Source of the DNA: Burkholderiales bacterium
GTDB taxonomy: Bacteria > Pseudomonadota > Gammaproteobacteria > Burkholderiales > Burkholderiaceae_C
Assembly: GCA_013044035.1 (NCBI GenBank)
Contig: JABEVE010000061.1
Span: 1-36,372, forward strand
Length of the DNA stretch: 36,372 nucleotides
Reading direction: 5' to 3'
Below the pieces are notes generated by a model. It saw nothing but the letters and a program-made list of their open reading frames with translations. It was not told where the DNA came from and did no database searches. The position numbers and the translations under genes were made by a program. Positions 8,655 to 34,249 of this stretch are shown here, piece by piece. Every line of letters starts with the position of its first letter. The stretch's first letter is position 1.

Positions 8655-9593
8655 CTAATTGGACACATGCGCTGGATCTGCTCCGGGTGGGACATGGTGA
8701 GCGCGGTCTGGCGCCAGATCCAACGCGGCGCTTTGCCGTTTCAGCACGTCCGCACAAATCCAGTCGATGAAGGCGCGCTGGGCGTTGATCGAGGTCATGA
8801 TGTGGTCGATGGGCGCCAGCCAGTCCGTGCGCAGGCCGGGGATCGGTGCATCATCCAGCCCAAAGGCCTCGACGATTTGTGCGTCGTAGTTGACGTTGCT
8901 GAAGTCAGCCCCCGACTGCACCACCGAGACTTGCACGCCCCTTTGCGCCAGTTGTGTGAGACCCGGAATCAATTGCGCTTTTGTGGGGCGGTCGCCAACA
9001 GGGGCTGCGGCATCGGCCTGCAACCGCTGGAGCCTTCGCATCAGCCCCAGCGAAAGCCAACCCAGAAAACTCACGGCACGTCGCAGGTAGAGCATGAAGG
9101 CGGTTGGCTTGAAACCGTGGCTGCGCAGCCGAATGGCAATGAAACGCCAGCGACTTCGCAGGGTCTGCAAAAAGAAGACGTCATGCAGGATGATGTGGCG
9201 CACGCGCGCGTCTTGCTGCGCGGTCCAATAGCTCGGCAGCGCGCCGGAACAGAAACCGAGCAAGGTGAAATGCGGCACGCGCGTGGCGGCCTGCAGCGTG
9301 TCCATCGCCGCCTGCAAATCGCGCACCACCTGTTGCTGGTAGTTCAGTTGGCCGTCCGCCCCCAGGCTGTCGCCCATGCCGTGCAGGTCGAAACGGATGG
9401 TGGGGATGCCGTGGCGCGCCAGCTCGCGCGCAAGCTTGACGTTGATGCGATGCGGCCCGACGCGGTGCACCACGCCGGCGTTGAACAACACCATGCCGCA
9501 TGCTGCGGCAGACGCGTCGAGGTGTGCGGCGGGCAGGGTCAGGGTGCCGATCAGTCCGTGGTCGGGGCCGAAGGCGAGGGTGGTTTCATGCAT
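8655..9593 (-). CDS. Alpha/beta-hydrolase, exosortase-A-system-associated hydrolase 1-like, Cys in the nucleophile elbow
   Basis: A 312-aa alpha/beta-hydrolase fold protein. IRFDLHGMGDSLG (67-79) is the strand 4 and loop segment typical of the fold. The nucleophile elbow reads LLGFCSG, so the G-x-S-x-G pattern becomes G-F-Cys115-S-G. DH at 263-264 is the candidate catalytic His motif. From memory, the hydrolase 1 family found in exosortase-type EPS loci (TIGR03100) also has Cys at this place, which supports the assignment. Its natural substrate is not known. A Cys nucleophile would suit thioester or acyl-transfer chemistry, which matters next to a thioesterase-less NRPS. The start overlaps the previous hydrolase stop by 8 bp, indicating coupled translation. 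Confidence 0.8.
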   Translation of the reverse strand: MHETTLAFGPDHGLIGTLTLPAAHLDASAAACGMVLFNAGVVHRVGPHRINVKLARELARHGIPTIRFDLHGMGDSLGADGQLNYQQQVVRDLQAAMDTLQAATRVPHFTLLGFCSGALPSYWTAQQDARVRHIILHDVFFLQTLRSRWRFIAIRLRSHGFKPTAFMLYLRRAVSFLGWLSLGLMRRLQRLQADAAAPVGDRPTKAQLIPGLTQLAQRGVQVSVVQSGADFSNVNYDAQIVEAFGLDDAPIPGLRTDWLAPIDHIMTSINAQRAFIDWICADVLKRQSAALDLAPDRAHHVPPGADPAHVSN

Positions 9594-10416
9594 GGGCGGC
9601 TTGTGTCAGGGCGTCAAGCGCGCGGTCCACCCAGGCCCGGGGAACGATGGCGGTGTTCAACGCGCTGTTGGTGGCCCAGTCGATGTCGGAGTCGGAGGGC
9701 GCAATGCGCAATTGGGGCGACGCCAGAAGATCGCGCCTGGCCGTCCAGGCGGTGAACGCGTCGATTTGTGGCGTGAGGATGATGCTGTGGCGGGCACGGC
9801 CGGGCCAGGGTTGGCGCGGGTCGATGCGCGCGGCAATTTGCGCCTTGCAGGCCGGCGTCAGCGCGAAGCCCAGCGTCTCACCGTCAGGATCGGGCAGGTT
9901 GAATTGGCGCAGCGCGGGGTCGATGCGCCAGCGCGAGGCGAACATGCCGGCCATGGTGTCGGCGTTGGATTGCCGCAAGGCCAGTAGATGGCTGCTGCCA
10001 TCGGCCACCGGCTCGAACAGCAGCAGATGGTCCAGCGGCTCGGTCCAACGACGTGAGGCCAGCGCCGCGATGTTGCCGCCCAGCCGCAGTCCCAGGCATG
10101 ACAGCTTGCCGACGCGGCTGCGCTGCAGCAGCAGGTTGCCGGCAGCCACGGTGTCGGCGATGGCGCCGTCGAGGTCGAACTCGGTGTCCTCGCCGGCCGA
10201 GTCGCCGCTGCCGTAGTAGTCGAAGCGCAACACATGAAAGCCAGTCGCCGCCAGGCGGTCGCCGAGCACACGGTACAGGCGATGGGCGCGAATGGCTTCC
10301 TGACCGAAGGGGTTGCACAGCAGCACGGCATGGTCACGTGCCGTGGCGTCGGCACTCGGCTCGAGATGCAGCGCGAACAGCTCGCGCGCGTCGCGCAAGA
10401 ATCGCAGTGGGGTCAA
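9586..10416 (-). CDS. Alpha/beta-hydrolase-fold protein, exosortase-A-system-associated hydrolase 2-like, Arg in the nucleophile elbow
   Basis: A protein of about 276 aa from a proposed TTG start at 10416. The TTG overlaps the phosphopantetheinyl transferase stop as TTGA and has GGAG eight bases upstream. GTG 10425 is also possible. The open frame extends upstream to 10494, but that part is a shadow of the transferase gene. VLLCNPFGQEA (31-41) and VLRFDYYGSGDS (62-73) show the fold. The elbow is CLGLRLGG, so Arg111 stands where Ser, Cys or Asp should be. I recall a similar GLRLG elbow in hydrolase 2 proteins of exosortase loci (TIGR03101). This suggests a non-catalytic or unusual member that works with hydrolase 1, encoded directly downstream with an 8-bp overlap. 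Confidence 0.75.
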   Translation of the reverse strand: MTPLRFLRDARELFALHLEPSADATARDHAVLLCNPFGQEAIRAHRLYRVLGDRLAATGFHVLRFDYYGSGDSAGEDTEFDLDGAIADTVAAGNLLLQRSRVGKLSCLGLRLGGNIAALASRRWTEPLDHLLLFEPVADGSSHLLALRQSNADTMAGMFASRWRIDPALRQFNLPDPDGETLGFALTPACKAQIAARIDPRQPWPGRARHSIILTPQIDAFTAWTARRDLLASPQLRIAPSDSDIDWATNSALNTAIVPRAWVDRALDALTQAAHA

Positions 10417-11261
10417 GTTCGCCACTCCGGCTGATGGCTGGCGATCTGCGGCTCGATATGCGCGAAACCTCCCACCACGGCCAGCGCGGCGCAATAGCCG
10501 CTGGGAGCTGCCAGCGGAGCGATGTCGATGGGTGTGTCAACACCGCCCACCTCCACGGTTCGGCGCTGCCGGTCCAAGCCCACATGCAGCTGGCGCGGCT
10601 CCAGCCGCAGGCCGATGCCCAGTGCTTTCAGGCAGGCTTCCTTGCGTGTCCAGCAGCCGACGAACATGTCCGCATGGTCGGATGCGGCACATTGCGCCAA
10701 CTCGTCGAGCTCCATGGCGCTCAGCACGCCGGCAGCCAGGTCGGGGCCGGGCAGATCGTCGCGCACGGCCTCGATGTCTACACCCACTTCGATACCTGCC
10801 GTCACGGCGATCAGCGCCAGATCCTTGCTGTGGCTCAGGTTGAAGCACAGCGGCGAGCGACCCACGCCAGGCGACGCTTGCAGCAGCACCGGCTTGCCGT
10901 GAGCGTCCGTGGCGAAGCGCAACTGCTGCGGCGGCACGGCGAGATAGGCGCCGAGAATGCGCCGCAGCCAAGCATGCGCCGTCACATAGCGCCGCCAGTC
11001 ATGGGCGTAGACGAAGCGTTGGGCACGCTCGGTCTCGGCGGCGTCGAGCAGGGCGGGCGCATCGGCACCCATATCGCGCAGATCGAGCCGCCAGATGTGC
11101 ACATTGCGGCCCTGCGGCCAGGCCAGCGTGGCCGGCCCATGGGCGCACGGGCGCGGCGGCAGCGTGGTGGCAAGACTCGGCGGCCTGGGGTTGTACGGCG
11201 CATTGCCATGCGCGCGCGACCAGCGCTGGGCATGGGGTTCGCGGGTTGGTGTGGACAGCAT
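10413..11261 (-). CDS. Sfp-type 4'-phosphopantetheinyl transferase
   Basis: Transfers the phosphopantetheine arm of CoA to the conserved Ser of carrier domains. Here it is surely dedicated to the carrier domains of the two megasynthases upstream. At 282 aa it has the Sfp length. The motifs are complete: FNLSHSKDLAL with His144, GVDIE at 160-164 with metal-binding Asp162 and Glu164, and WTRKEACLKALG at 204-215 with Lys207, Glu208 and Lys212. The first 45 residues are a Pro-rich, probably disordered extension. The ATG at 11261 is firm, because GGAGG lies five bases upstream. It follows the NRPS by 22 bp and overlaps the next hydrolase by 4 bp. Confidence 0.93.
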   Translation of the reverse strand: MLSTPTREPHAQRWSRAHGNAPYNPRPPSLATTLPPRPCAHGPATLAWPQGRNVHIWRLDLRDMGADAPALLDAAETERAQRFVYAHDWRRYVTAHAWLRRILGAYLAVPPQQLRFATDAHGKPVLLQASPGVGRSPLCFNLSHSKDLALIAVTAGIEVGVDIEAVRDDLPGPDLAAGVLSAMELDELAQCAASDHADMFVGCWTRKEACLKALGIGLRLEPRQLHVGLDRQRRTVEVGGVDTPIDIAPLAAPSGYCAALAVVGGFAHIEPQIASHQPEWRT

Positions 11262-11283
11262 GGATGCCTCCGTCGGTGATGGT

Positions 11284-14200
11284 TCAGGGCAGGCTCTTGC
11301 CGCGGCCCAGGCCGCCGAACAGGCGTTTGACCAGGCCGGGTCTGCTCAGGGTCTCGACTTCGAGTTCGTCGTAATGGCGCGCGATCTGGCCCAGCGTCTC
11401 GAAGATCAGCAGGCGCGCGTTGGCGCGCTTGCCGGTGCGCTCATGCATGCCGATGACGGCTTGCATCGCCGTGAGCGAATCGCCACCCAGGTCGAAGTAG
11501 TTGTCCTGCGGTTCGATCTGCTCGGGCTTGAGGCCCAGCAGCGAAGACCAGATTTCGGCCAGGGCCTGCTCTGTCGGCGTCAGCGCGCGGTTGATGGCGT
11601 TCGGCTTGGGCGCAGTGCCGGGGTCTGCGCGCGGGGGCGTGGCCTCGGGTTGAATCTCGGGTTTGGCGGCGGCCGCGAGATGGTGCAAGGCGGCTGCCGC
11701 TGGCGAGGCCTGCGTCGCCAGCAAGGCGTTCAGCGGCTGTTGCGGGTCGGCGACGAAGCGTTGAACCAGTTCGAGGAATCGCGTCTTGAACGCCGCTGCG
11801 GTGCTCGCGCTGTAGATGTCGGCGTTATAGGTGAAGCCGCCCTCCAGCCCGTCCGGCACGTCCATCAGCCACAGGCCCAGGTCCTCGGTGGCGCCCTTCT
11901 GGAATAGGAGGATGCTGCTTTGCTCCAGATCACCCCAAAGCCGGGTGCGCTCGCGTGCATCCTGAAACGAGAATAGCGCCTGGTAGATGCCGGCGTGCTG
12001 CGAGCGCGCCTTCATTTCCGGCTCCATCGCCAGGCGCTCGAAGGGAATGTCCTGAAAGCTGAGCACGTCGAGGAATTCCTGCTTGACCCGGTGCAGGTAG
12101 TCGGTCGTGGCCTGGTTCGGGTCGAGCCGTAGTTGAAGCGGCAGCAGGTTGTTGAAAAACCCCATCACCGGCTCGACTTCGGTCATCATGCGGCCGCGCA
12201 CGGGCACGCCGATCACCACGTTCTCGCTGCCGGCGGTCTGCGCCATCATGGCGCCGTACAGCGCCAGCGCCAGCATGTTGAGGGTGACGTCCGACTGTCG
12301 GGCGATGTCACGCAGTTGCTCCGTCGTCGCCTGGTCGATGCGCACCCATTCGGTGGCGCCCTCGCCGCTCATGCCGGCGCTGCGCGGTCGGTCGGTTTGC
12401 AAGGTCTTGGGCGCTGGGGCCTGGGCCAGGCGCAGGTTCCAGTCGCGCAGCTGCGCGGCGAAGGCCGGGCTTCGCAGCCATTCGGCCTGCCAGTGGGCAT
12501 AGTCGGCATAGGTCACGGGCAGGGGCGCGAGGATGTTGGGCGTGCCCTGCCTGCGCGCGGCGTAACAGGCGGCCAGCTCGCTGTAGAGCAGGTCGAACGA
12601 CCAGCCATCCCAGATGATGTGATGGGGCATGAACAAGAAGGCATGCTCTTGCGGCGCCAGCTTGAACAGCGCGACACGGAACAGCGGCGCCTGATGGATG
12701 TCGATGGGCTGGTCGACGATCGCCTGCATGCGGCGCATGAGTTCGGCTTCGCGCTCCGCCTCGGGCCGCTGGCTGAGGTCATCGAAAGGCAGTTCGAAGT
12801 TCGCCGGCGCCATCACCACCTGTTCGTGCCGGCCGTTGACCGTGCGGATGACGCTGCGCAGCGCAGGCTGGCGCAGCATCATGTCGAGCAACGCCTGTTT
12901 GAAGGCGTCCAGCGCCAGCGGGCCGCGCAGGCGGTGCGCGGATGGCGAGTTGTAGACCACCCGACCCGGATACAACTCCTCCATGAACGCGATGCGCTCC
13001 TGCTGCGCGGTGAGCGGCGCGGTGGTGCGTACAGGGTCGTGGCGGATGGCGATGCGGCCACCACCGCCGGCATCCCGGGCCTTATCGATGGCGTGGGCCA
13101 AGCGCTCCGCCGTGGGTGACTCGAACACCAGGCGCAAGGGCAGATTCAGGTCGAGCGCGACATTGAGCTGCGCGACCAGGCGCGCGGCCAGCAGCGAGTG
13201 GCCGCCCATGGCGAAAAAGTCGTCGAGCACGCTCATGCCGGGCAGCTTGAGCACATGCTCCATCAGGCTGAGCACGGCCTGTTCCGTGGCGTTGCGTGCC
13301 GGTACGCGGCTGTGCCCCTTGTCCGCTTGCGTGGGGTTGGGGACGGGCAGCGCGCGTCGGTTGATTTTGCCGCTGGGCAGCAGCGGCATGGCGTCGAGCT
13401 GGACGATGATCTGCGGCACCATGTAGTCGGGCAGCGCCTGACGCAGGTGGTTGCGCAGGGCTTCGCCGTCGACCGGCGCGCCGTCGGCCACGACATAGGC
13501 GACGATGCGCAGGTCGCCCGGGTGGTCTTCACGGGTCATGGCCACGGCCTGGCGGATGCCGGATTGGGCCAGCAGTTGGGTTTCGATTTCGCCCAGCTCG
13601 ATGCGGTAACCGCGCACTTTCACCTGATGGTCGCTGCGGCCCAGGTAGTCGAGGGCGCCGTCGCCGCGCCAGCGGGCGATGTCGCCGGTGTTGTACAGGC
13701 GTCCACCGCTGCGCAATGGATCGGGGATGAAGCGCTCGGCCGTCAACTCGGGGCGCCCGGCGTAGCCCATGCCGACCTGCACGCCGCCGATGTAGAGATC
13801 GCCCGCCGTGCCGATGGGCAACGGCCGCAGCCGGGCATCGAGCACATGCAGTTGGGTGTTGGCGATGGGCGCGCCGATGGGCACCGAGGCGGAGGGCTCC
13901 GCAGGCCGGCATTCCCAGGCACTCACGTCCACCGCGGCCTCGGTCGGGCCGTAGAGATTGGCCAATTTCGATTGCGGCAGTACCGTGAAAAAGCGCTCGA
14001 CCAACTCGAGTGGCAGCGCTTCGCCGGAGCACACCACGCGGCGTAGCCGGGTGCAGGCGCTTGCTGCGGGCTCGTCCAGAAAGAATCGCAACATGGACGG
14101 CACGAAGTGCATCACGTCGATACGTTCGCGCCGCACCAGATCGGCCAAATACGCGCTGTCGCGGTGGCCATCAGGTTTGGCCACGACCAAGGTGGCGCCG

Positions 14201-16317
14201 ACGGCGAGCGGCCAGAAGAACTCCCACACCGAGACATCGAAGCTGAAGGGTGTTTTCTGCAGCACGCGCTCGCCCGGTTGCAGCGCATAGGCCTCCTGCA
14301 TCCACAGCAGGCGGTTGACGATGCCGCGGTGCGCGTTCATCGCGCCCTTGGGGCGGCCGGTGGAGCCGGAGGTGAAAATCACATAGGCCGGATCGGATGC
14401 GTGCCCCAAGGGCGGCAAGGGTGGCACGGCGTCGTCGGCTTGCCAGGCGGCGTCGTCGATGAACACGGGATCACCCGCCGCCGCGAAAGCGCCGCTGCGG
14501 CCGGCATGTTCCATGTGACGCGTGACCAGCAGGCGGACCCCGGCATCGTCCACCATGCCGGCCAGGCGCTCGACAGGCAGGGTTGGGTCCAGTGGCACAT
14601 AGGCCGCGCCGCTGGCGATGATGCCCACCAGCGCCACCACCAGATCGAGGCTGCGCTCCAGGCAAACGCCCACCCGTTCGCCCGGGCCGGCGCCCCGTGC
14701 GCGCAGCGCATGGGCCAGTTGACGGGCGCGGGCATGCAGCTCGCGGTAGTTGAGGGTTTGACCCTCGAATACGAGCGCGGAGGCCATCGGGTCATGCCGC
14801 AGTCCGGTTTGCAGCAGATCGTTCAGCAGCAACTCCTGCGGAAAATCGCGCGCCGTGTTGTTCCAGGCTGCAAGCAGGGCTTGCTCCGATGGCGTGGGCG
14901 CGAGCAGCGTGGCCAGAGCTTGGGCCGGATCGGCGGCTGCGCGCGCCAGCGCTTCGCGGTACAACTCGAGCCAGCGGCGCACCGTGGCCTGATCGAACAA
15001 CGCGGTCTTGTACTGGCATTCCAGCAGCAGTCCTTGCGTGTCTTGGGTGACATTGAGATACAGCTCGAAATTTTCGGCGCTGCGCGGATTGGAAAAGATT
15101 TCCGCTTGCAAGCCTGCCGGTGCAAAGCCGGCGGCATCCATGCGCGCATCCAGATTGAACAGCACGGACACCAGCGGCAAGCGTCCCGGTTCGCGCTGGA
15201 CTTGCAGGTGTTTGAGCAGACCGCCGAAGCTCACGCTCTGGTGTTCGTAAGCATCGAGCACCGCGGTGCGGGATTGCAGCACCAGCGCCGATGTGTCGGC
15301 TTCGACGTCGATCAGCATGCGGATGGGCAGCAGGTTGACGCAGTGGCCGACGAGGCTGTTGCTGCCCTTGCTCGACTGTCCTGCGGCGGAGACCCCGATG
15401 ACGACGTCGTCTTGCCCGGACAAGCGCGAGATCAGCGCGGCGAAGACGCCGAACAGCGTCGCGAACAGACTGGCCCCATGACGCGCGCCGAGCTTGCGCA
15501 CGGCATCCAGCGTGTCCGAGTCGAGACGCAAGTCCTCGCGCCGGGAGGCAAAAGCGCGCTGGGGCAGGCGCGGGCGGCGGGTGGGTAAATCGAGCGCAGG
15601 CATCGAGTGGTCGTACAGCGCGACCCAGTAGCCCGTATCGGCCTCGGCCTGCGCGACAGACGCTGGCTCGAGTTGTGCCAGGGCATGGTCGGCATAGGCT
15701 TCGGCAACCGGCAAGACGGCCTGGGGATGATCTGACGCCGCCGCGGCCAGCAGGGCCGCCAGATCGCGCAGCAGCACGCCGAAGGACCAGCCGTCGCAGA
15801 CGATGTGGTGGGCGGTGAGCACCAGCACGGCATCGAACTCGCTCAGCGCAATGAGCTGGGCGCGCAGCAGCGGGCCTTGTTCGAGGTTGAACGGGGTGTC
15901 GACGTCGGCGCGGACATGGCGCTGCAGCGAGGCTTCGCGCTGCTCGGGGGTGAGGGCGCTGATGTCGTGCACGGGCATGTCGAGCGCGAGGGATTCGGCG
16001 ATGAACATGTCCTGGCCGTCGGCACCGAAGGTCGCGCGCAGCGCGTCGTGGCGGGCGACGAGGGCGCCCAGCGCGCGGCGCAGGACTTCGGCATCGAGCG
16101 CGCCGGGCGCTGTGCTCTGCGAGAGGCTTCGCAGGCGCAGACTGACGGATTCGTTGTAGGCCAGACTGGCTTCGGCGCCGAGCTGGCAGGCGAGCCAGAT
16201 TTCGCGCTGCGCCTCGGTGGTGGGCACGACACGGGCGATGGGCGCGGCGTCGGCGAAAGGGTTGTAGTCGACGGCGGAGAGGCCGTCTGGGCCTGGGTCT
16301 TGGCTCATGTCGTTCAT
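11284..16317 (-). CDS. Non-ribosomal peptide synthetase, C-A-PCP-C-PCP, predicted serine-activating
   Basis: A protein of 1677 aa. Domains by residue: C1 about 28-470 with HHIVCDG (His171, Asp175); A about 500-995 with FTSGSTGRPKG, NLYGPTE, YNTGD and LPSGKINRRALP; PCP1 about 1010-1075 with GGHSL (Ser1041); C2 about 1098-1520 with HHIIWDG (His1233, Asp1237); PCP2 about 1585-1650 with GGDSL (Ser1614). Specificity positions read by eye are D694 V695 W698 H737 V762 S764 L788 V796 D797. This gives DVWHVSLVD, almost the EntF serine code. There is no epimerase, second A domain, thioesterase or reductase, so the last C-PCP pair must be loaded in trans or act in release. C1 should accept the product of the upstream hybrid synthase. 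GGGAG lies nine bases before ATG 16317, and the gap to the upstream gene is 25 bp. Confidence 0.93.
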   Translation of the reverse strand: MNDMSQDPGPDGLSAVDYNPFADAAPIARVVPTTEAQREIWLACQLGAEASLAYNESVSLRLRSLSQSTAPGALDAEVLRRALGALVARHDALRATFGADGQDMFIAESLALDMPVHDISALTPEQREASLQRHVRADVDTPFNLEQGPLLRAQLIALSEFDAVLVLTAHHIVCDGWSFGVLLRDLAALLAAAASDHPQAVLPVAEAYADHALAQLEPASVAQAEADTGYWVALYDHSMPALDLPTRRPRLPQRAFASRREDLRLDSDTLDAVRKLGARHGASLFATLFGVFAALISRLSGQDDVVIGVSAAGQSSKGSNSLVGHCVNLLPIRMLIDVEADTSALVLQSRTAVLDAYEHQSVSFGGLLKHLQVQREPGRLPLVSVLFNLDARMDAAGFAPAGLQAEIFSNPRSAENFELYLNVTQDTQGLLLECQYKTALFDQATVRRWLELYREALARAAADPAQALATLLAPTPSEQALLAAWNNTARDFPQELLLNDLLQTGLRHDPMASALVFEGQTLNYRELHARARQLAHALRARGAGPGERVGVCLERSLDLVVALVGIIASGAAYVPLDPTLPVERLAGMVDDAGVRLLVTRHMEHAGRSGAFAAAGDPVFIDDAAWQADDAVPPLPPLGHASDPAYVIFTSGSTGRPKGAMNAHRGIVNRLLWMQEAYALQPGERVLQKTPFSFDVSVWEFFWPLAVGATLVVAKPDGHRDSAYLADLVRRERIDVMHFVPSMLRFFLDEPAASACTRLRRVVCSGEALPLELVERFFTVLPQSKLANLYGPTEAAVDVSAWECRPAEPSASVPIGAPIANTQLHVLDARLRPLPIGTAGDLYIGGVQVGMGYAGRPELTAERFIPDPLRSGGRLYNTGDIARWRGDGALDYLGRSDHQVKVRGYRIELGEIETQLLAQSGIRQAVAMTREDHPGDLRIVAYVVADGAPVDGEALRNHLRQALPDYMVPQIIVQLDAMPLLPSGKINRRALPVPNPTQADKGHSRVPARNATEQAVLSLMEHVLKLPGMSVLDDFFAMGGHSLLAARLVAQLNVALDLNLPLRLVFESPTAERLAHAIDKARDAGGGGRIAIRHDPVRTTAPLTAQQERIAFMEELYPGRVVYNSPSAHRLRGPLALDAFKQALLDMMLRQPALRSVIRTVNGRHEQVVMAPANFELPFDDLSQRPEAEREAELMRRMQAIVDQPIDIHQAPLFRVALFKLAPQEHAFLFMPHHIIWDGWSFDLLYSELAACYAARRQGTPNILAPLPVTYADYAHWQAEWLRSPAFAAQLRDWNLRLAQAPAPKTLQTDRPRSAGMSGEGATEWVRIDQATTEQLRDIARQSDVTLNMLALALYGAMMAQTAGSENVVIGVPVRGRMMTEVEPVMGFFNNLLPLQLRLDPNQATTDYLHRVKQEFLDVLSFQDIPFERLAMEPEMKARSQHAGIYQALFSFQDARERTRLWGDLEQSSILLFQKGATEDLGLWLMDVPDGLEGGFTYNADIYSASTAAAFKTRFLELVQRFVADPQQPLNALLATQASPAAAALHHLAAAAKPEIQPEATPPRADPGTAPKPNAINRALTPTEQALAEIWSSLLGLKPEQIEPQDNYFDLGGDSLTAMQAVIGMHERTGKRANARLLIFETLGQIARHYDELEVETLSRPGLVKRLFGGLGRGKSLP

Positions 16318-16342
16318 GGGTGTGTGCTCCCGGTGAAGAGGC

Positions 16343-19300
16343 TCATGCCCCCACTTTGAGGAAGCGGCCGGGCTCGGCCGGGTTGGGCACGAACCAGGCG
16401 GGTTTGCCGCTGGCGTCCTTGCCCAGGCGGGCGCCGGGCACGGGCGGCCTGGCAGCGTCGAACACCACCGACACCGGGGACTTGTGGCGCGGCAGGAATT
16501 CGGACTCCTGCAGCTCGCGCACCGAGTCTTTGAACGCGGTGGCGACGAGACGGATGTCGGCCTCGCTGTGCGCGGTGGTGAGGAAGCAGGGGAAGTTGTC
16601 GAGGATGTGCACGCCGCGGCTGCGCATCATGGCGAACAGCAGGTCTTGCAGCGGGTGGTCTTCCAGCCAGGCGACGCGCCAGAGCGAGGCGAAGTGGCGA
16701 ATTTCCAGCGGCGCACCCTGCTCGCGGCAGAAGGCGCTGAGTTCTTCGGCCAGCGCGGTGGTCGAGGCGTTGAGTTGGTGTTGCAGCGGCGGGCCGGCGG
16801 TCTTCAGGTGCAGCAGGCTGGCGTGGGCGGCGGCCAGGGCCAGCGGGTGGCGCACGAAGGTGCCGGCGAAGTAGGTGACGCCGACACTGGGGATGGAGTC
16901 ATCGTCGAACTGCCAGGCGCCGCCGTCGAGCGCGTCCATGAACTCGCGCTTGCCGGCCACCACGCCGATGGGCATGCCGCCGCCGATGACCTTGCCGTAG
17001 GTGGCGAGGTCGGCGCGTATGCCGAACAGCTCTTGCGCGCCGCCGAGCGCGGCACGGAAGCCGGTGATGACTTCGTCGAAGATGAGGCAGGTGCCGCTGG
17101 CGGCGGTGATGCCGCGCACCTCCTTGAGGAAGTCCACCGGGCGCCATTCGGGGCGGCGGCTTTGCACCGGCTCGACCAGCACGGCGGCCAGATCATTCGC
17201 GTTGGCGCGGATGAACTCCAGCGACTCCGGGGTGCCGTAGTCCAGCACGCGCACGTCGCCGAACATGCCGCGCATGATCCCCGGCGCCGCCGGAATGCCC
17301 TTGTGCTGCTTGCCGGAGCGCACCAGCACTTCATCGAAGGTGCCGTGGTAGGAGCCGGTGAACAGCACCACGGTGCTGCGGCCCGTCACGGTGCGGGCCA
17401 TGCGCACCGCGGCCATGACGGCCTCGGAGCCGGTGTTGCACAGACCGGCGCGGTCGAAGCCGGTGAGCTCGCACACCAGTTCGGCCACCGGGCCGGCCAG
17501 CGGATGCTGCGGGCCGATGTCGTAGCCCGCGTCGAGCTGCTGGCGCACGGCGTCGAGCACGAAATCGGGCTGCCAGCCAAACAGACTCATGCCGAAGCCG
17601 TTGAGCACGTCGACATACTGGTTGCCGTCCAGGTCCCACAGGTACGCGCCCTTGCTGCGCGCGATCACGACCTGGTAGACGATGTCCTTGATCATCGGCC
17701 GAAAGCCGTTGACCACGCGCGGGTCGGCGAGGTGGCCGCGGTGCTGCGCGGTGTAGGCGCGGCTCTTGCCGGTGCGCTCGACATACCGGCGCATGAACGC
17801 GGCCAGGCGGGCGCGCTGGCGCTCGGTCAGGGCGCTGGCCTGGGTGTGAATGCGGGCGATGGCGCCGAAGGCCTTCTGCACGTCGTAGCGCTGGGTGGCG
17901 GCATCGTCGGGTGACGCTGCAGCGGGCGTCGATGGTGCTGGCGCGGCGTGTGTTGGGATGGATGCGGACTCGGGCGAGCCAGTGGTTGCAGCTGCCTCTG
18001 GGGCTGTCGCTGTGGTTGGAGAGGAGGTCGCGGCACGGTCTGGCGAGGAGGGGCCGGCAGCCGTGGGCGGCGCAGCGGCAGCCTGCGCGGCCATGAACGG
18101 CGTGCTGCTGAGCAAGGCGAGCTGCTGCGCCATGAGCTGCATTTGCTGCTGGATGAGTTGCTGCAGGGCCGTGGCGGGAGCGTCCGTGGCGAGCGGCGGC
18201 TTGAGCAGGGCTTGCAGGCTGGCTTGGGACGTGGCGAATAGCGCGGGCATGGCGGCGGCACTTGGCGCGGCGGGCTCTAGGCCCGCACCCTGTGGCTGGT
18301 CGATGGCCGCTGCCGGGGCTTGGATCTGGGCCATGGGCTCGGGCGGCAGTTGCGCGTCGAGGTGTGCGGCGAGCAGGTCGATGCTGTACAGGCTTTCCAT
18401 CAACTGGCGGAACGTGACGGGAACGCCGAACTCCTTTTTCACCTGCAGTGCCACTTGCGTCAGGGTGAGCGAGTCGATGCCGAGTTCGACGAAGGCGGCC
18501 GCGGCGTCGGTCTGGCTCAGGTCTTCGCCCGAGACGTCTTCGAACACATCGCGCAGGCGGGCGACGAGTTGGCCCTTGCGGGCAGCGGATGTCGGTGCGG
18601 CGGCGATGTCGGGCTGGGTCGTGGACATGGCGGGAGACATGGCAGAAGGGGAAACCGGCGGAACGAAGGCCAGCACGGTGGCGCTGGGGTTGGGTGCCGA
18701 GCGAGCCATCCCCCTCCCGGCCTCCCCCAAGGGGTGGGGGAGGGGCGCACGATCGGTGTCCGCGGTGGAGTCTGCGCAAACGACAGCGGAGCCGCTGGTA
18801 GGCCCGCTTTCATGCAAGGGGGCGAGGAGCGGCGCACGGCCCGCATGTGTGGTGGAGTCGGCGCAGGCTTGCGTGGTGGCGGGTGTGGGAGCGCTTGCTG
18901 GAGCGTTTGTTGAAACGTTTGTGCAGGCGCATGCTGTGGCGATGCTGGAACTGGGGTCTTGCTCCCTCCCCACGGCGTGGGGAGGGTTGGGGAGGGGAAG
19001 GTTTTGCGGCGCTGATACGGCGCGCGCCACGGGTGCGTCGATCCAGAAGCGCCTGTGCTCGAAGGCGTAGGTGGGCAACTGGATGCGGCGGCGCCCCGTG
19101 GCGGGATTGGCGGCGGGCGCGGGCAGGTCGAGGCCCGCGGTCCACAACGCGCCTTGGGCGAGCAGCATCTGCGCCGCTTCGCGCTCGGGCGCGTCGCCCA
19201 GGCTGGCCACGGCGAACAGGGAAACGCCGGCCCGGCCATGCTGGCGCGCCAGGGTGGCGAGGGTGGCGCGCGGGCCGAGTTCGACCCACGCGGCGTCGGC

Positions 19301-22300
19301 GTGCCGTTGCAGCGCGGTGCGCACGGCGGACGAGAAACGCACCGGCTCGCGCAGGTGGCGCACCCAATAGTCGGCGTGGGTGGCGTCGGCATCGGTGAGC
19401 CAGGTGCCGGTGCGGGTGGAGACGATGGGGATGGTGGGCGGCGAGAGCTTCACCGCGCGTACCGCGGCGGCAAAGGTGTCGAGCGCGCCGTCCATCATCG
19501 GCGAATGGAAGGCGTGCGAGGTTTGCAGCCGGCGGCATGGCACACCGGCGGCGTCCAGTTCGGCTTGCCAGGATTCGATGTCGGCGCTGGGGCCGGCGAC
19601 GACGCAAGCGGTGGGACCGTTCTCGGCAGCCAGGGCCAGGGCTGGGGGCAGGCGCGCGAGCACATCGGCCACGCGCAGGCGCACCGACAGCATGCTGCCG
19701 GGCGGCTGGGCCTGCATCAGCGCGCCGCGCTGCGCCACCAGGCCGGCGGCGTCTTCCAGGGACATGACCCCGGCGAGCGCGGCGGCGACGAATTCGCCGA
19801 CGCTGTGCCCGATGAGCGCAGCGGGCCGCGCACCGCGCGCCAGCCAGCTTTGCGCCAGCGCGTGTTCGAGCGCGAACAGGGCGGGCTGGGTGGTGGCGGT
19901 TTGCGCCAGGGCGCCACCGTCGCCGCCGAACATGCGGGCCTTCAGGTCGAAGGGCAGGTGCGGGGCGAGCGCGTTCAACGCCGTGTCGAAAGCCGCGCGG
20001 AAAGCCGGGTCTGCCGCGTACAGGCCGCTGCCCATGCCGGGGTATTGCGCGCCCTGGCCGGAGAACATCCAGATGGACGCCGGCGCGCCGCTGCCGACCT
20101 GGCGCTGGGCGCGCAGCGCATGACGGGGCGCTTGCAGCGCTTGCATGGCTTCGTCCGCCGTCGCTGCGACGACACACAGGCGGTGCGCGAACACACTGCG
20201 CCCGACTTGCAGGGTGTGGGCGCAATCGGCCAGATTGATGTGCGGGTGCGCTTGCAGATACGCGGCGAGTTGCGTGGCCATGGCGTCCAGCGCCGCGTGC
20301 GTTTTGGCCGAGAGCGTGAGCAACTGCGCACCGGCGGCGGCGGACGACGGTGCGCGCAATGGCGCTTCTTCCAGCACCACATGGGCATTGGTGCCGCCGA
20401 CGCCGAAGCCGCTGACCCCAGCCCGGCGCGGCTGCTCGCCGCGCGGCCAGGGCGTGAGCCGGTCGCAGACCGTGAACGGGCTGTGGGCGAAGTCGATGCC
20501 GGGGTTGGGCGCGGTGTAGTGGATGCTCGGCGGCAGGGTTTCGTGCGCCAGCGCCAGGGCCGTCTTGATCACCCCGGCGGCTCCGGCCGCGATGACCATG
20601 TGGCCGACGTTGCTCTTGAGCGAACCGAGGCGGCAAAAGCCCACTTCGGCCGTGTGCTGGCGGAACGCGCGCGTGAGAGCCTCGACTTCCACCGGATCGC
20701 CCATCGGCGTGGCGGTGCCGTGCGCCTCGACATAGCTCACGCTGCGCGCGTCGATGCCGGCGTCGCGCTGCGCGGCGGCGATCACGGCGGCCTGGCCGTC
20801 CACGCTGGGGGCGGTGAAACTGGCCTTGTCGCGGCCGTCGTTGTTGACGGCCACGCCGCGAATCACGGCGAGCACCGCGTCGCCATCGGCCAGCGCATCC
20901 GGCAGGCGTTTGAGCAGCACCACGGCGGCGCCGTCGGAGAACACCGTGCCCTGGGCCTTCGCGTCGAAGCTGCGCGTGGCGCCGTCGGGCGAGAGCATGG
21001 CGCCGTCCTGGTAGAGATAGCCGCTGTTGGGCGGGCATGTCACCGAACTGCCGCCCGCCAGCGCCATGTCGCACTGTCCGGCGCGCAGGCTGACGACGGC
21101 CTGCGCAATGGCCACCAGCGAGGTGGAACAGGCGGTGTGCACGCTGACCGCCGGGCCGGTGAGGTTGAGGCGGTTGGCGGTGCGCGTGGCGATGTAGTCC
21201 TTCTCGTTGCCCAGCATGGTCTGGAAGGCGCCGAGCGCCTCGACGAGGTCCGGTCGGTGCTGCACGTGATGCTGGAAGTAGGTGGCGTTGTACATGCCGG
21301 CGAACACGCCCACCGGCACCGTCGTAGCGTCTGGCGCGTGGCCGGCGCGCTCCAGGCATTCCCAGCACAGTTCAAGGAAGATGCGCTGCTGCGGGTCCAT
21401 CAGCGCGGCTTCGCGCGGGCTGATGCCGAAGAAGGCCGCGTCGAACTGATCGACGCCGTCGATGATGCCGCGGGCCTTGACGTAGTCGGGGTTGGTGCTC
21501 AGGCTGGCGGGGATGCTGGGGTCGAGATCACACGCGTTGAATGGGGTGATGCTGTCGCGCCCGGTGAGCAGATTGGCCCAGAACTGTTCGACATCCGCCG
21601 CGCCGGGAAAGCGTCCCGCGGTGGCGACGACGGCGATGGGCTCGGGGCCGCTTGCCGCTGCCGTGTGCTCAGGCCGTGTGGCTGCGTCGCGCACCAGCCC
21701 GGCCAGCATGCGGCTGGACAGGCGGCGCCCATCCAGCGCGGGCGCGGCGCCGGGGGCGGACCCCAGCAGGCGCGCCAGGGCGGCGGGCGTGGGCTGGCTG
21801 AAGAATGCATGGGTGCCCAGCCTGCGTGCCGCATCGCCCAGCAGCGACAACACCTTGAGCACCAGCAGCGAGTTGCCACCGAGGTCGAAAAAATTGTCCA
21901 GTCGCCCTACCTGTTGCAGGCCCAGGGCCTGGGCAAAGGCATCGCAGACGCGCTGTTCGGCTTCGCCCTGCGGGGCTTGGTAGGGGTTGGTCAGGTCGGG
22001 GCGAGAGCTTTGCGGCTCGGGCAGTGCCTGCTGGTCGAGCTTGCCATTGGTGGTGATGGGCAGGGCGGGCAGCCAGACGAAGGCGGCGGGCAGCATGTAA
22101 TCGGGCAGGCGTTTGGCCAGCAGGGCGCGCAGGTCCGCGCTGTTCGGGGCTTGGCCGCTCGCAACGCCGTAGGCGATGAGGCGCGCGTTGCCGGCAGCGT
22201 CCTTGCGCGCGATGACGGCGCAGGATTTGACGGCAGGATGCGCGGCGAGCGCAGCCTCGACCTCACCGAGCTCGATGCGAAAGCCGCGAATCTTGACCTG

Positions 22301-23530
22301 GGTGTCGGCGCGGCCGAGGTAGTCGAGGTTGCCGTCGGGCAGTCGGCGCACGAGATCACCGGTGCGATACAGACGCTCGCCAGCCGCGCCAGAGGGGTTG
22401 GGTATGAAGCGCTCGGCGGTGAGTTCGGGCTGGTTCAGATAGCCGATGCCGAGCCCGGCTCCACCCACGAACAGTTCACCCGCTTCACCCGCCGCAACCT
22501 CGGTCAGGCCGGCGCTCAGGACATGCACCTGCGTGGCGTTGATCGGCTTGCCGATGGGGATGCTGCGGGCGTCTGTGGGGAGGTCGCGCGGGATGGTGAA
22601 GGCGGTGGAGAAGGTGGTGCATTCGGTGGGGCCGTAGCCGTTGATCAGGCGTACCTCGGGCAGGGCCTGCAGCGCACGGCGCACGTGACGCACCGACAGC
22701 GCCTCGCCGCCGGTGAGCAGTTGTGTCAGGCCGCGCAGGTGTTCGGGGGCGTCGTCGATCACGGCGTTGAACAGCGCTGCGGTGAGCCAGGCGGTGTTCA
22801 CGCCGTGCGTGCCGATGGTGCGGGCCAGGCCGGCCGGTGTCGGCAGGTCTTCGTCGTGCAGCACGCACATGCCGCCGTTGAGCAGCGGCCCCCAGATTTC
22901 CAGCGTGGACGCGTCGAACCCCAAGGGGGCGGCGTGCAGCATGCGGGTGTCAGGCCCCAGGCGCATGTAGTTGGGCTCGGTCACCAGACGCAGAATGGCC
23001 GTGTGCGGGATGCCGATGCCTTTGGGCAGGCCGGTCGAGCCCGAGGTGTACATGATGTAGGCCAGTGCCACGGCCTGCGACGGCAGCGAAAGCGACAGCG
23101 CGCGCGGCGGGGAGTTGGCTGGCGCGGCATCGAGCACCAGCAGCGGGGCATGTGCCGAGAACCGTTCGGCATGGGCAGCCAGGGTGATGACGAGGCCGGC
23201 GCCAGCGTCGCGCAGCATGTGACTGGTGCGCTCGACGGGATAGGCCGGATCCAGTGGCAAGTAGGCAGCGCCCACCTGCAGGATGGCCAGCAAGGTGGCG
23301 ATGCTGTCGATCGAGCGCGGCAGTGCCACACCGACCACGCTGGCGGGCAGCACACCGCTGGCGCGCAGGCGCTGGGCCAGCACATCCGCGCGCGCTTGCA
23401 GCTGCGCGTAATTCAGGGTTTGAACGCCGTGCACCAGGGCCGGGGTATCGGCATGTCGCAGCGCGAGCCGCGCGAACACGTCAGTGACGGTTCGCGGCGC
23501 GCTGGCGGATGGAGCTTGGTGATCGGTCAT
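16343..23530 (-). CDS. Hybrid NRPS-PKS megasynthase with C-terminal aminotransferase, A-PCP-KS-AT-ACP-AMT
   Basis: About 2395 aa from ATG 23530 (AAGG upstream; ATG 23581 is possible). Domains: A about 15-510 (YTSGSTGLPKG, GYGPTE); PCP with Ser554; KS about 628-1057 with catalytic Cys801, His937 and His977; AT about 1152-1450 with GHSVG (Ser1243) and the malonyl-type motif HAFH at 1339-1342; ACP about 1652-1723 with GIDSL (Ser1687); PLP class III aminotransferase about 1946-2350 with FDEVITGF and Lys2180 in TYGKVIGGG. The A-domain code reads D206 A207 L210 W248 L272 G274 G298 T306 F307, that is DALWLGGTF, close to the valine code. No KR, DH or C domain is present. Predicted action: load valine, extend once with malonate, convert the beta-keto group to an amine as in MycA-like enzymes, and pass the chain to the downstream NRPS. 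A Pro/Ala-rich linker (about 1505-1645) contains repeats, and a Gln-rich helix (about 1788-1808) precedes the AMT. Confidence 0.94.
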   Translation of the reverse strand: MTDHQAPSASAPRTVTDVFARLALRHADTPALVHGVQTLNYAQLQARADVLAQRLRASGVLPASVVGVALPRSIDSIATLLAILQVGAAYLPLDPAYPVERTSHMLRDAGAGLVITLAAHAERFSAHAPLLVLDAAPANSPPRALSLSLPSQAVALAYIMYTSGSTGLPKGIGIPHTAILRLVTEPNYMRLGPDTRMLHAAPLGFDASTLEIWGPLLNGGMCVLHDEDLPTPAGLARTIGTHGVNTAWLTAALFNAVIDDAPEHLRGLTQLLTGGEALSVRHVRRALQALPEVRLINGYGPTECTTFSTAFTIPRDLPTDARSIPIGKPINATQVHVLSAGLTEVAAGEAGELFVGGAGLGIGYLNQPELTAERFIPNPSGAAGERLYRTGDLVRRLPDGNLDYLGRADTQVKIRGFRIELGEVEAALAAHPAVKSCAVIARKDAAGNARLIAYGVASGQAPNSADLRALLAKRLPDYMLPAAFVWLPALPITTNGKLDQQALPEPQSSRPDLTNPYQAPQGEAEQRVCDAFAQALGLQQVGRLDNFFDLGGNSLLVLKVLSLLGDAARRLGTHAFFSQPTPAALARLLGSAPGAAPALDGRRLSSRMLAGLVRDAATRPEHTAAASGPEPIAVVATAGRFPGAADVEQFWANLLTGRDSITPFNACDLDPSIPASLSTNPDYVKARGIIDGVDQFDAAFFGISPREAALMDPQQRIFLELCWECLERAGHAPDATTVPVGVFAGMYNATYFQHHVQHRPDLVEALGAFQTMLGNEKDYIATRTANRLNLTGPAVSVHTACSTSLVAIAQAVVSLRAGQCDMALAGGSSVTCPPNSGYLYQDGAMLSPDGATRSFDAKAQGTVFSDGAAVVLLKRLPDALADGDAVLAVIRGVAVNNDGRDKASFTAPSVDGQAAVIAAAQRDAGIDARSVSYVEAHGTATPMGDPVEVEALTRAFRQHTAEVGFCRLGSLKSNVGHMVIAAGAAGVIKTALALAHETLPPSIHYTAPNPGIDFAHSPFTVCDRLTPWPRGEQPRRAGVSGFGVGGTNAHVVLEEAPLRAPSSAAAGAQLLTLSAKTHAALDAMATQLAAYLQAHPHINLADCAHTLQVGRSVFAHRLCVVAATADEAMQALQAPRHALRAQRQVGSGAPASIWMFSGQGAQYPGMGSGLYAADPAFRAAFDTALNALAPHLPFDLKARMFGGDGGALAQTATTQPALFALEHALAQSWLARGARPAALIGHSVGEFVAAALAGVMSLEDAAGLVAQRGALMQAQPPGSMLSVRLRVADVLARLPPALALAAENGPTACVVAGPSADIESWQAELDAAGVPCRRLQTSHAFHSPMMDGALDTFAAAVRAVKLSPPTIPIVSTRTGTWLTDADATHADYWVRHLREPVRFSSAVRTALQRHADAAWVELGPRATLATLARQHGRAGVSLFAVASLGDAPEREAAQMLLAQGALWTAGLDLPAPAANPATGRRRIQLPTYAFEHRRFWIDAPVARAVSAPQNLPLPNPPHAVGREQDPSSSIATACACTNVSTNAPASAPTPATTQACADSTTHAGRAPLLAPLHESGPTSGSAVVCADSTADTDRAPLPHPLGEAGRGMARSAPNPSATVLAFVPPVSPSAMSPAMSTTQPDIAAAPTSAARKGQLVARLRDVFEDVSGEDLSQTDAAAAFVELGIDSLTLTQVALQVKKEFGVPVTFRQLMESLYSIDLLAAHLDAQLPPEPMAQIQAPAAAIDQPQGAGLEPAAPSAAAMPALFATSQASLQALLKPPLATDAPATALQQLIQQQMQLMAQQLALLSSTPFMAAQAAAAPPTAAGPSSPDRAATSSPTTATAPEAAATTGSPESASIPTHAAPAPSTPAAASPDDAATQRYDVQKAFGAIARIHTQASALTERQRARLAAFMRRYVERTGKSRAYTAQHRGHLADPRVVNGFRPMIKDIVYQVVIARSKGAYLWDLDGNQYVDVLNGFGMSLFGWQPDFVLDAVRQQLDAGYDIGPQHPLAGPVAELVCELTGFDRAGLCNTGSEAVMAAVRMARTVTGRSTVVLFTGSYHGTFDEVLVRSGKQHKGIPAAPGIMRGMFGDVRVLDYGTPESLEFIRANANDLAAVLVEPVQSRRPEWRPVDFLKEVRGITAASGTCLIFDEVITGFRAALGGAQELFGIRADLATYGKVIGGGMPIGVVAGKREFMDALDGGAWQFDDDSIPSVGVTYFAGTFVRHPLALAAAHASLLHLKTAGPPLQHQLNASTTALAEELSAFCREQGAPLEIRHFASLWRVAWLEDHPLQDLLFAMMRSRGVHILDNFPCFLTTAHSEADIRLVATAFKDSVRELQESEFLPRHKSPVSVVFDAARPPVPGARLGKDASGKPAWFVPNPAEPGRFLKVGA
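18721..18743. repeat. GC-rich inverted repeat inside the megasynthase linker, copy 1
   Basis: CCTCCCCC (18721-18728) and GGGGGAGG (18736-18743) are exact inverted arms around a 7-bp spacer. On the coding strand this specifies the peptide PLPHPLGEAGRG. That translated signature commonly marks a REP-like palindromic element inserted in frame in GC-rich proteobacterial genes. It lies in the AT-ACP linker, where extra residues would be tolerated. Confidence 0.55.
18745..18868. repeat. Imperfect 37-bp direct repeats in the megasynthase linker
   Basis: Two copies, 18745-18781 and 18832-18868, are offset by 87 bp (29 codons) and match at 26 of 37 positions by my count. They encode the related peptides VCADSTADTDRAP and ACADSTTHAGRAP. 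The spacing preserves the frame. This suggests that the inter-domain linker grew by duplication. Confidence 0.5.
18964..18986. repeat. GC-rich inverted repeat inside the megasynthase linker, copy 2
   Basis: CCCTCCCCAC (18964-18973), loop GGC, and GTGGGGAGGG (18977-18986) form a perfect 10-bp stem. The coding strand gives PNPPHAVGRE. It resembles copy 1 at 18721-18743 in sequence and in its place within the same linker, so the two probably belong to one small palindromic repeat family. Confidence 0.55.
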
Positions 23531-30366: not shown

Positions 30367-30443
30367 GGTGGGCTCCCGGGATTCACGCCTGTCTGTTTTG
30401 CATGGGCTTGTCGGCTTGAGGCTGTGGCGTGATCGCGGCGCGC

Positions 30444-34159: not shown

Positions 34160-34249
34160 ACATCGCCCGTCCATGGCACGCGCTGCCCACCTTCCCATCA
34201 GCCTGCGAATCTCGGCGTGGCCGCTCGGTGCGCTGGTCAGGAACCTTCG

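What the first reader, a model, noticed from the sequence alone, without database searches (positions are those of the whole stretch)
10413..23530. Hybrid NRPS-PKS with its own phosphopantetheinyl transferase inside an exosortase-type polysaccharide locus
The sequence shows two megasynthases, an Sfp-type transferase and two unusual hydrolases in one unidirectional block. The block is flanked on one side by EPS export and chain-length genes and on the other by glycosyltransferase and Wzx genes. Known exosortase loci contain hydrolases 1 and 2, an acyl-CoA ligase and a lone carrier protein. A full assembly line with KS, AT and aminotransferase in this place is not something I recall described. 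The inference is that a small acyl-peptide decorates the polysaccharide or its lipid-linked precursor, or is secreted with it.
Basis: partly seen in the sequence, partly recalled or inferred. Interest (0 to 1): 0.88.

Follow-up and report, generated by a model that had tools for sequence, protein, structure and literature searches.

The report
Peptide-making enzymes inside polysaccharide gene cluster
A bacterial gene cluster for making and exporting a slime sugar also carries an assembly line for a small amino-acid-like compound, and the same pairing recurs in other bacterial genera, which suggests that the compound belongs to the slime, although this has not been tested.

Summary
Window 8655-23530 (minus strand) encodes an A-T-KS-AT-ACP-AmT synthase, a C-A-T-C-T synthetase, an Sfp-type PPTase and two alpha/beta-hydrolases, between XrtA-type EPS genes and ElyC/GT4/Wzx genes. 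One label is wrong: no exosortase was found in this genome or 24 same-genus genomes. The module is widespread. Of 49 genomes checked, 21 have a Wza gene within 45 kb of the AmT, against 1.6 expected by chance, in at least three gene arrangements. The other 28 do not; among them is a Variovorax lineage where the compact module sits among unrelated genes. The synthetase has no thioesterase and ends in a basic, hydrophobic tail (75 of 78 complete orthologues). Hydrolase 2 lies within 45 kb in 44 of 49; the two genomes found with a thioesterase lack it. Hydrolase 1 has an invariant Cys at the nucleophile position; hydrolase 2 has Arg there. Best reading: a short, amine-rich pseudo-peptide (A-domain codes read as Val, then Ser or Gly) stays on the last carrier and is moved by hydrolase 1 onto the polysaccharide or its lipid-linked precursor. 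The attachment step is inferred, not shown; a free product is the main rival.

The parts
16343..23530 (-). Hybrid synthase: A (about 38-520 of the 2412-aa ORF), T, KS, AT (malonyl-type HAFH motif), ACP, class-III aminotransferase (AmT); no KR found
   Evidence: Pfam and NCBIfam; active-site motifs TACS, EAHGT, NVGH, GHSVG, GGNSL, GIDSL, YGKV present; AmT profile hits mycosubtilin AmT at 501.8 bits, next best GSA aminomutase 209.1
11284..16317 (-). NRPS C-A-T-C-T, no thioesterase found, with a basic, hydrophobic C-terminal tail (GLVKRLFGGLGRGKSLP)
   Evidence: Pfam; two HHxxxDG and two GGxSL motifs; tail comparison over orthologues
10413..11261 (-). Sfp/HetI-type 4'-phosphopantetheinyl transferase
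   Evidence: PF01648 53.6 bits, PF22624 44.6 bits; NF042922 121 bits, below its cut-off of 370
9586..10425 (-). Hydrolase 2: alpha/beta-hydrolase fold with Arg at the nucleophile position, probable pseudo-enzyme
   Evidence: TIGR03101 75 bits, cut-off 202.75; alignment A3 of 38; model pLDDT 92.6; fold matches
8655..9593 (-). Hydrolase 1: alpha/beta-hydrolase fold with Cys115 at the nucleophile elbow and His264
   Evidence: TIGR03100 78 bits, cut-off 168.45; Cys115 and His264 invariant in 37 of 37 aligned; model pLDDT 85.9, strand 108-114 followed by helix 115-127; fold matches
23836..24735 (-). XrtA-type tyrosine autokinase TIGR03018
   Evidence: 233.9 bits, cut-off 230.65
24745..26319 (-). 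Polysaccharide chain length determinant TIGR03007
   Evidence: 422 bits, cut-off 278.85
26453..28705 (-). TIGR03015 ATPase fused to a UDP-GlcNAc 2-epimerase (WecB-type) domain
   Evidence: 368.6 bits, cut-off 324.5; TIGR00236 WecB 138 bits, below its cut-off of 210
28720..30447 (-). TIGR03016 outer membrane protein
   Evidence: 152.6 bits, cut-off 90.85
30444..31172 (-). Polysaccharide export protein (Wza type), TIGR03027
   Evidence: 209.2 bits, cut-off 180
31200..32810 (+). EpsB-type polyprenyl glycosylphosphotransferase TIGR03013
   Evidence: 474 bits, cut-off 393.35
32879..34159 (+). TviB-like UDP-GlcNAc C-6 dehydrogenase
   Evidence: NF011729 504 bits, below its cut-off of 592; TIGR03026 392 bits, cut-off 189.8
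34217..35311 (+). TviC-like UDP-GlcNAcA C-4 epimerase
   Evidence: NF011728 418.7 bits, below its cut-off of 760
7791..8561 (-). DUF218/ElyC-like membrane protein
   Evidence: PF02698 90.5 bits
6439..7665 (-). GT4 glycosyltransferase
   Evidence: PF13692 142 bits
4935..6455 (-). Wzx-type flippase
   Evidence: PF01943 72 bits
3306..4307 (-). GT2 glycosyltransferase
   Evidence: PF00535 75.9 bits

Best explanation
The five genes PKS, NRPS, PPTase, hydrolase 2 and hydrolase 1 form one functional module that serves the EPS made by the surrounding Wzx-type locus. Proposed steps: (1) the PPTase charges the carrier domains (inferred from family). (2) The starter A domain loads an aliphatic amino acid, Val-like by its binding-pocket code (code read here; its meaning is recalled). 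(3) KS and AT add one malonyl unit, and the AmT turns the 3-keto group into an amine, giving a 3,4-diamino acyl chain (inferred from domain order and the mycosubtilin-type AmT). (4) The NRPS adds Ser (Gly in more distant orthologues); the final C-T pair adds a further unit loaded in trans or accepts the chain. (5) With no thioesterase, the chain stays on the last T domain, held near the membrane or a partner by the basic tail. (6) Hydrolase 1 takes the chain onto Cys115 and, with hydrolase 2 as a non-catalytic partner, passes it to an amine or hydroxyl of the EPS repeat unit on its lipid carrier, before Wzx export. Steps 1-4 rest on domain anatomy; steps 5-6 are inference.
For: Gene order EPS block, PKS, NRPS, PPT, hyd2, hyd1 is conserved in G013, G010 and G021, and in G001 without a PPT match. 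EPS linkage recurs in different arrangements: Dyella and Rhodanobacter, with TviB/TviC/EpsB on one side and hyd1/hyd2, kinase, Wzz and Wza at the far end; V. paradoxus, with PKS, NRPS, PPT, hyd2, hyd1, Wza, kinase, sugar transferase contiguous on one strand (independently annotated record CP063167). Wza within 45 kb of the AmT: 21 of 49 (20 without one match under the cut-off) against 1.6 expected. Hyd2 within 45 kb: 44 of 49. Two synthetases have a C-terminal thioesterase (G045, G047; PF00975); these genomes have no hyd2 at E<=1e-12. No room for a thioesterase (at most 95 residues after the last T motif) in 75 of 78 complete synthetases, in one more by eye. C-terminal tail: 75 of 78 meet the criterion, against 22.9% of random segments. 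Cys and His invariant in 37 of 37 hydrolase 1 sequences; Arg in at least 90% of 38 hydrolase 2 sequences. The one true exosortase-family pair examined (G039; 307 and 273 bits, over cut-off) shows the same Cys/Arg pattern.
Against: Of 49 genomes, 28 have no Wza within 45 kb on the same contig (many are drafts). In 10 Comamonadaceae regions of 40 kb from that group (G043, G044, G049, G050, G053, G054, G059, G060, G064, G065) no EPS block was seen, only a 28% TviC-like match at the edge of G050; 9 of 10 sit at one site next to ttcA-like and phosphoglycerate-mutase-like genes (gene names by eye). Hyd1/hyd2 occur in EPS loci without the megasynthases (G014, G018), so they are not specific to them. 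Besides the two with a thioesterase, G068 and G069 have no hyd2 at E<=1e-12, and G076 has it 77 kb away. Two Variovorax plasmids have the synthases with no hydrolase pair within 18 kb. Two relatives have a thioesterase, so their product is probably free. No enzyme that would attach the product was identified other than by inference. The tail criterion is lenient, and the tail could be a docking peptide.
Confidence: 0.42

Rival explanations
1. The module makes a free, secreted small molecule (metallophore or signal) that is used together with the slime; its genes lie with EPS genes because both are needed in biofilms. Hydrolase 1 is a stand-alone thioesterase that releases it.
For: One Variovorax lineage keeps the compact module with no EPS genes seen and, in 7 of 10 regions, next to a convergent RND-type pump (pump named by eye). 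Two relatives end in a thioesterase. Two Variovorax plasmids carry the synthases about 8 kb from copper oxidase and cupredoxin genes, and a more distant Spirosoma plasmid homologue also lies near copper genes; a vicinal diamine would chelate copper (general knowledge).
Against: No exporter or receptor gene that stays with the module across the clades was recognised in the regions read (not searched for as such). The EPS link recurs in three arrangements, which co-use alone does not require. The final synthetase carries a conserved tail instead of a release domain.
Confidence: 0.33
2. Hitch-hiking: EPS loci are variable islands that collect foreign cassettes, and the megasynthases are passengers with no role in EPS.
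For: Same-genus genomes have EPS loci without the megasynthases on the stretches read (G004, G008, G014, G018, G022, G024), so the cassette comes and goes. Its GC is higher (0.67-0.72) than that of the flanking bins (0.54-0.66). One relative (G013) has a 461-aa ORF, transposase-like by eye, in the gap before the PKS gene.
Against: The same passenger next to EPS genes in three different orders and in both Burkholderiales and Xanthomonadales is unlikely by chance (21 of 49 against 1.6 expected, kinship ignored). The window ORFs are intact and the AmT is highly conserved (66-89% identity over five relatives).
Confidence: 0.18
3. The product is a regulator or substrate of the EPS machinery (for example loaded on the outer membrane protein or chain-length protein) and is not part of the sugar polymer.
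For: The megasynthases lie directly after the chain-length and kinase genes in the window genus.
Against: That neighbourhood is not kept in Dyella, where a cupin/JmjC protein and EpsB precede and a glycosyltransferase (by eye) and a Wzy_C protein follow.
Confidence: 0.07

Closest known systems
Mycosubtilin/iturin synthases and microcystin McyE (PKS with in-line beta-aminotransferase)
   Same: KS-AT-ACP-AmT order (recalled for these) and a class-III aminotransferase whose closest solved relative by far is the mycosubtilin AmT
   Different: Starter is an A-T module rather than a fatty acid (the detail for mycosubtilin and McyE is recalled); the second protein is a short C-A-T-C-T without thioesterase; genes lie in an EPS locus
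XrtA/PEP-CTERM exosortase-associated EPS loci (TIGR03007, 03013, 03015, 03016, 03018, 03027; hydrolases TIGR03100 and 03101; ligase TIGR03098)
   Same: Six EPS families above their cut-offs; a divergent hydrolase 1/2 pair with the same Cys/Arg signature as a true pair in G039. One relative of the wider set, G068, has an exosortase 36 kb from the AmT in an XrtA-type EPS region
Glycopeptidolipid loci of mycobacteria (recalled, not tested)
   Same: NRPS and PKS genes next to glycosyltransferases
   Different: Those make a cell-surface lipid, not a Wzx-type exopolysaccharide; no gene relation was tested
Orphan 'T1PKS, NRPS-like, NRPS' clusters reported by antiSMASH in Variovorax and Rhodanobacter genome papers (PMC10946135, PMC11596576)
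   Same: Same genera and cluster type in passages seen by term search; the Variovorax one was labelled microsclerodermin at 21% similarity
   Different: In the passages seen, neither paper links the cluster to EPS genes; identity with the present module was not checked

Membership tests
Exosortase (XrtA) EPS locus | XrtA exosortase in the genome | tested here: not met
   TIGR03109: 0 matches in G000 and in 24 same-genus genomes; PF09721: 0 of these 25. G000 is 95% complete.
Exosortase (XrtA) EPS locus | XrtA-type EPS core genes above cut-off | tested here: met
   TIGR03007, 03013, 03015, 03016, 03018, 03027 all over their cut-offs
Exosortase (XrtA) EPS locus | Hydrolases 1 and 2 at the family cut-off | tested here: not met
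   78.4 against 168.45 and 75.1 against 202.75 bits
Exosortase (XrtA) EPS locus | Acyl-CoA ligase TIGR03098 at cut-off in the window | tested here: not met
   A domains only, 236 and 219 bits against 592; best stand-alone match in the genome 477 bits on contig C63
Hybrid NRPS-PKS with mycosubtilin-type AmT | KS, AT, carrier and AmT domains with active-site motifs | tested here: met
Hybrid NRPS-PKS with mycosubtilin-type AmT | Product with a beta-amino group | not testable with these tools
   needs chemistry
Free natural-product cluster | Release domain or thioesterase in the cluster | tested here: inconclusive
   No TE domain in the window synthetase; hydrolase 1 could act in its place
Wzx/Wzy-type EPS locus | Glycosylphosphotransferase, Wzx, chain length protein, kinase, export protein | tested here: met
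Wzx/Wzy-type EPS locus | Wzy polymerase | tested here: inconclusive
   None recognised among the window ORFs scanned with Pfam; a Wzy_C protein is present in the Dyella locus
Sfp-type PPTase | ACPS and N-terminal PPTase domains above cut-off | tested here: met

The most novel reading that the evidence does not exclude
A widespread class of bacterial exopolysaccharide, not described in the papers searched, is decorated with a short, amine-rich pseudo-peptide built by a dedicated NRPS-PKS, and a Cys-type alpha/beta-hydrolase with a pseudo-hydrolase partner is the transferase that moves it from the last carrier domain to the sugar. The exosortase-associated hydrolase 1/2 pairs would then be transferases of the same kind for simpler carrier-bound groups.
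Probability: 0.33. Interest if true: 0.86.

Novelty: new variant of a known kind. Interest (0 to 1): 0.64.

Why it matters
If the product is joined to the slime polymer, modular peptide synthesis would be a source of polysaccharide substituents, which would change how EPS chemistry is predicted from genomes, and it would suggest a function for the exosortase-associated hydrolase pair. If the product is free, a large family of orphan NRPS-PKS clusters in Variovorax, Dyella, Rhodanobacter and Lysobacter still gains a biological context (biofilm) and a test system in culturable strains.

Tried and rejected
Considered and set aside: (1) exosortase locus proper: no exosortase. (2) Siderophore: no receptor or transporter gene that stays with the module was recognised in the regions read; it was not searched for as such. 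(3) A role for the hydrolases as strict megasynthase thioesterases: weakened by G014 and G018, which have them in EPS loci without megasynthases, and by two plasmids with synthases but no pair nearby. (4) Hydrolase function from fold: both models match many generic esterases, and sequence search of hydrolase 1 against solved structures finds only alpha/beta-hydrolases of other or unknown function, which says nothing about the substrate. (5) PADLOC: no defence family for hyd1, hyd2, PPT or ATP-grasp. (6) Literature: in ten searches no title or abstract start in the listings describes a PKS-NRPS module tied to EPS. The library holds only open-licence PMC papers, so this is weak evidence of novelty. 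Haft 2006 (PMC1569441; abstract, section list and term search only) has no hit for hydrolase, ligase, acyl carrier or peptide synthetase. PMC10946135, PMC5583390 and PMC11596576 were seen only as passages found by term search.

EPS labels on the tree were set by me from Wza distance or EPS genes in the flank (two, L047 and L052, on weak 24-35% matches); 12 of 84 rows stayed unlabelled because of short contigs or unclear flanks, and two loci with partial AmT (L041, L051) were left out. The tree was the 'quick' kind and is unrooted: 3 changes of the label, direction unknown. Of 63 loci meant for the Wza search, 13 were dropped because of the limit of 50 and one was not held, so 49 were searched. 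Of the 49, G077's Wza match is a fragment under the cut-off, and G041 lies just outside the limit at 45.1 kb. The tail test used 78 complete synthetases out of 90 sequences, after leaving out six cut by a contig end, one PKS ORF (L056) and five duplicates. Gene calls outside the window come from my own codon-score script. A-domain codes were read by motif, and their amino acids are recalled.

Full report
What is there. The window is contig C105 of a 3.7-Mb draft genome of 108 contigs, 95% complete. On the minus strand, read 5' to 3', come an export protein, an outer membrane protein, an ATPase fused to a UDP-GlcNAc 2-epimerase domain, a chain-length protein, a tyrosine kinase, the PKS, the NRPS, a PPTase, hydrolase 2, hydrolase 1, ElyC, GT4, Wzx and GT2. 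EpsB, TviB-like and TviC-like genes run the other way at the right end. Six of the EPS proteins score over the cut-offs of XrtA-system families. The genome has no exosortase: TIGR03109 finds none in it or in 24 same-genus genomes, while three of the 16 other-family genomes in that search carry one over the cut-off, and PF09721 again finds 0 of 25. The locus is therefore of XrtA-related EPS type without the sorting system. One relative outside the genus, G068, does have an exosortase 36 kb from its AmT.

The assembly line. The PKS has one A-T loading module, KS, AT with the malonyl-type HAFH motif, ACP and AmT, with all active-site motifs looked for found. No KR was detected. The AmT profile matches the mycosubtilin AmT at 501.8 bits and the next family at 209.1. 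The NRPS is C-A-T-C-T. Binding-pocket residues read off by motif are, for the PKS A domain, D A L W L G G T F; for the NRPS A domain, D V W H V S L V D in the window and its closest relatives and D I L Q L G M V W in more distant same-genus ones; other codes occur in the wider set. From memory these three mean Val-like, Ser and Gly. In several Dyella and Rhodanobacter loci and in Piscinibacter the second NRPS module shows its own A domain, also Gly-like. The predicted chain is therefore a short pseudo-peptide with a vicinal diamine. This is a prediction from domain order and has not been tested.

Relatives. In the genus, full or partial orthologues of the NRPS (44-86% identity) were found in 11 of 24 genomes besides the window; G017 has a more distant partial one (42%) beside a hydrolase pair. 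EPS genes lie on the same contig in G001, G010, G011, G012, G013, G021 and G023 and in the window, that is 8 of 12; the contigs read of G002, G007, G019 and G020 are 4.1-20.2 kb long. G007 also has no chain-length gene over the cut-off. Six same-genus genomes show what the EPS locus looks like without the megasynthases, on the stretches read: G014 and G018 keep the hydrolase pair near the kinase gene, and G004, G008, G022 and G024 show no such pair (G004 has a hyd2-like domain in a longer protein).

Wider distribution. NRPS matches accompany the PKS in 79 of 80; the other is a 4.6-kb contig. Wza (PF02563) lies within 10 kb of the AmT in 6 of 49 genomes, at 10-45 kb in 15 (one of them a fragment under the cut-off), and farther or on another contig in 28. 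About 1.6 would be expected within 45 kb by chance, ignoring kinship. Three arrangements are seen: (a) the window genus; (b) Dyella and Rhodanobacter, with TviB, TviC and EpsB on one side of the PKS-NRPS, a cupin/JmjC protein and a Wzy_C protein in Dyella, a weak Wzx match in Rhodanobacter, GT4 genes and, at the far end, hydrolases, kinase, chain length and export genes; (c) V. paradoxus, with PKS, NRPS, PPT, hyd2, hyd1, export, kinase and sugar transferase in one run, which the annotation of CP063167 shows independently. On an AmT tree of 84 rows the EPS label needs 3 changes, against 19.9 for shuffled labels. The order names Burkholderiales and Xanthomonadales are partly recalled (one search gives Burkholderiales for Variovorax).

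Counter-evidence. In ten Comamonadaceae regions without nearby Wza, 40 kb each, no EPS block was seen; nine of the ten share one site beside ttcA-like and phosphoglycerate-mutase-like genes, and seven of the ten have an RND-type pump gene downstream (names by eye). There the module is PKS, NRPS, PPT, hyd2, hyd1 alone (in one of the ten, G053, no PPT was recognised and hyd1 only by tblastn). Two Variovorax plasmids carry the synthases with TIGR04325 methyltransferases and a 2OG-Fe(II) oxygenase, without the hydrolase pair within 18 kb, and with copper genes nearby.

The end of the line. A thioesterase (PF00975) was found after the last T domain in G045 (Ideonella) and G047 (MAG named Vitreoscilla); these two genomes have no hyd2 at E<=1e-12. 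Of 78 complete synthetases, 75 have at most 95 residues after the last T motif, one more is short by eye, and these two are the rest. Three further genomes lack hyd2 within 45 kb: G068 and G069 have none at that limit (G069's locus L081 has a weak match), and G076 has it 77 kb away. In 75 of 78 complete synthetases the last 32 residues hold a stretch rich in basic and hydrophobic residues, against 22.9% of random segments of the same proteins; mean net charge of the last 20 residues is +3.4. The exceptions are the two with a thioesterase and L079. I read the tail as a membrane or partner tether; a docking role is equally possible.

The hydrolase pair. Hydrolase 1 has Cys115 and His264 in 37 of 37 aligned sequences; the model puts Cys115 at the strand-helix turn where the nucleophile of this fold sits. 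Hydrolase 2 has Arg at the corresponding place in at least 90% of 38 sequences, so it is probably not a hydrolase at all. The one true exosortase-family pair examined, in G039 (TIGR03100 307 bits, TIGR03101 273 bits), shows the same Cys and Arg. This signature suits transfer from a carrier thioester at least as well as hydrolysis; that is inference.

Verdict. The idea that the product decorates the polysaccharide is the best-supported of several readings but is unproven; I put it at 0.42, with a free product at 0.33. Nothing in the search listings describes it, but that library is partial.

Noticed in passing
26453-28705: XrtA-type ATPase (TIGR03015) fused in one ORF to a WecB-type UDP-GlcNAc 2-epimerase domain; full-length matches occur in G010, G013 and G021, while G001 gives separate matches to the two halves.
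   Followed up: partly
429-3094: Polysaccharide deacetylase gene followed by an ATP-grasp plus low-molecular-weight phosphatase fusion; G011 has both near its EPS genes.
   Followed up: no
L139:8753-15883 (G000 contig C63): Second set in the same genome: asparagine-synthase-like protein, TIGR03098-like ligase (477 bits), 87-aa carrier-like protein, NadE-like, methyltransferase-like and GNAT-like proteins (names by eye except the ligase).
   Followed up: partly
L120:18858-19772 (Dyella); gaps upstream of the PKS gene in G010 and G001: A cupin/JmjC-type protein (probable 2OG-Fe hydroxylase) sits just upstream of the PKS in Dyella, Ideonella and the Vitreoscilla-named MAG and, by eye, in G010 and G001, but not in the window's 305-base gap. 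In G013 the gap holds a 461-aa ORF that looks like a transposase by eye.
   Followed up: partly
L201:31541-35813, L203:31009-35280, L202:23310-31518: Copper oxidase, cupredoxin or copper ATPase genes near PKS-NRPS homologues on two Variovorax plasmids and near a PKS homologue on one Spirosoma plasmid.
   Followed up: no
L204 (Rhizobium sp. SL42 plasmid): A 49%-identical AmT in an NRPS-PKS cluster beside polysaccharide pyruvyl transferase, GH16 and glycosyltransferase genes: a possible fourth polysaccharide link in another class.
   Followed up: no
L126:8327-9100, L200:10980-11753, L135:12479-13276: TIGR04325-family methyltransferases, or relatives of one, recur next to the module in Variovorax, Piscinibacter and others.
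   Followed up: partly
G011 and G001 PKS genes (L032, L030-L031): G011's PKS has an extra N-terminal stretch matching a condensation domain (28%); G001 and G010 have an N-terminal extension that looks by eye like the remnant of one, so the window's A-T start may be derived.
   Followed up: no
G068:C5 (L127-L129): A relative with an exosortase (PF09721 242 bits) 36 kb from the AmT, in a region with XrtA-type ATPase, kinase and chain-length relatives: the one case seen where exosortase locus and megasynthases meet.
   Followed up: partly
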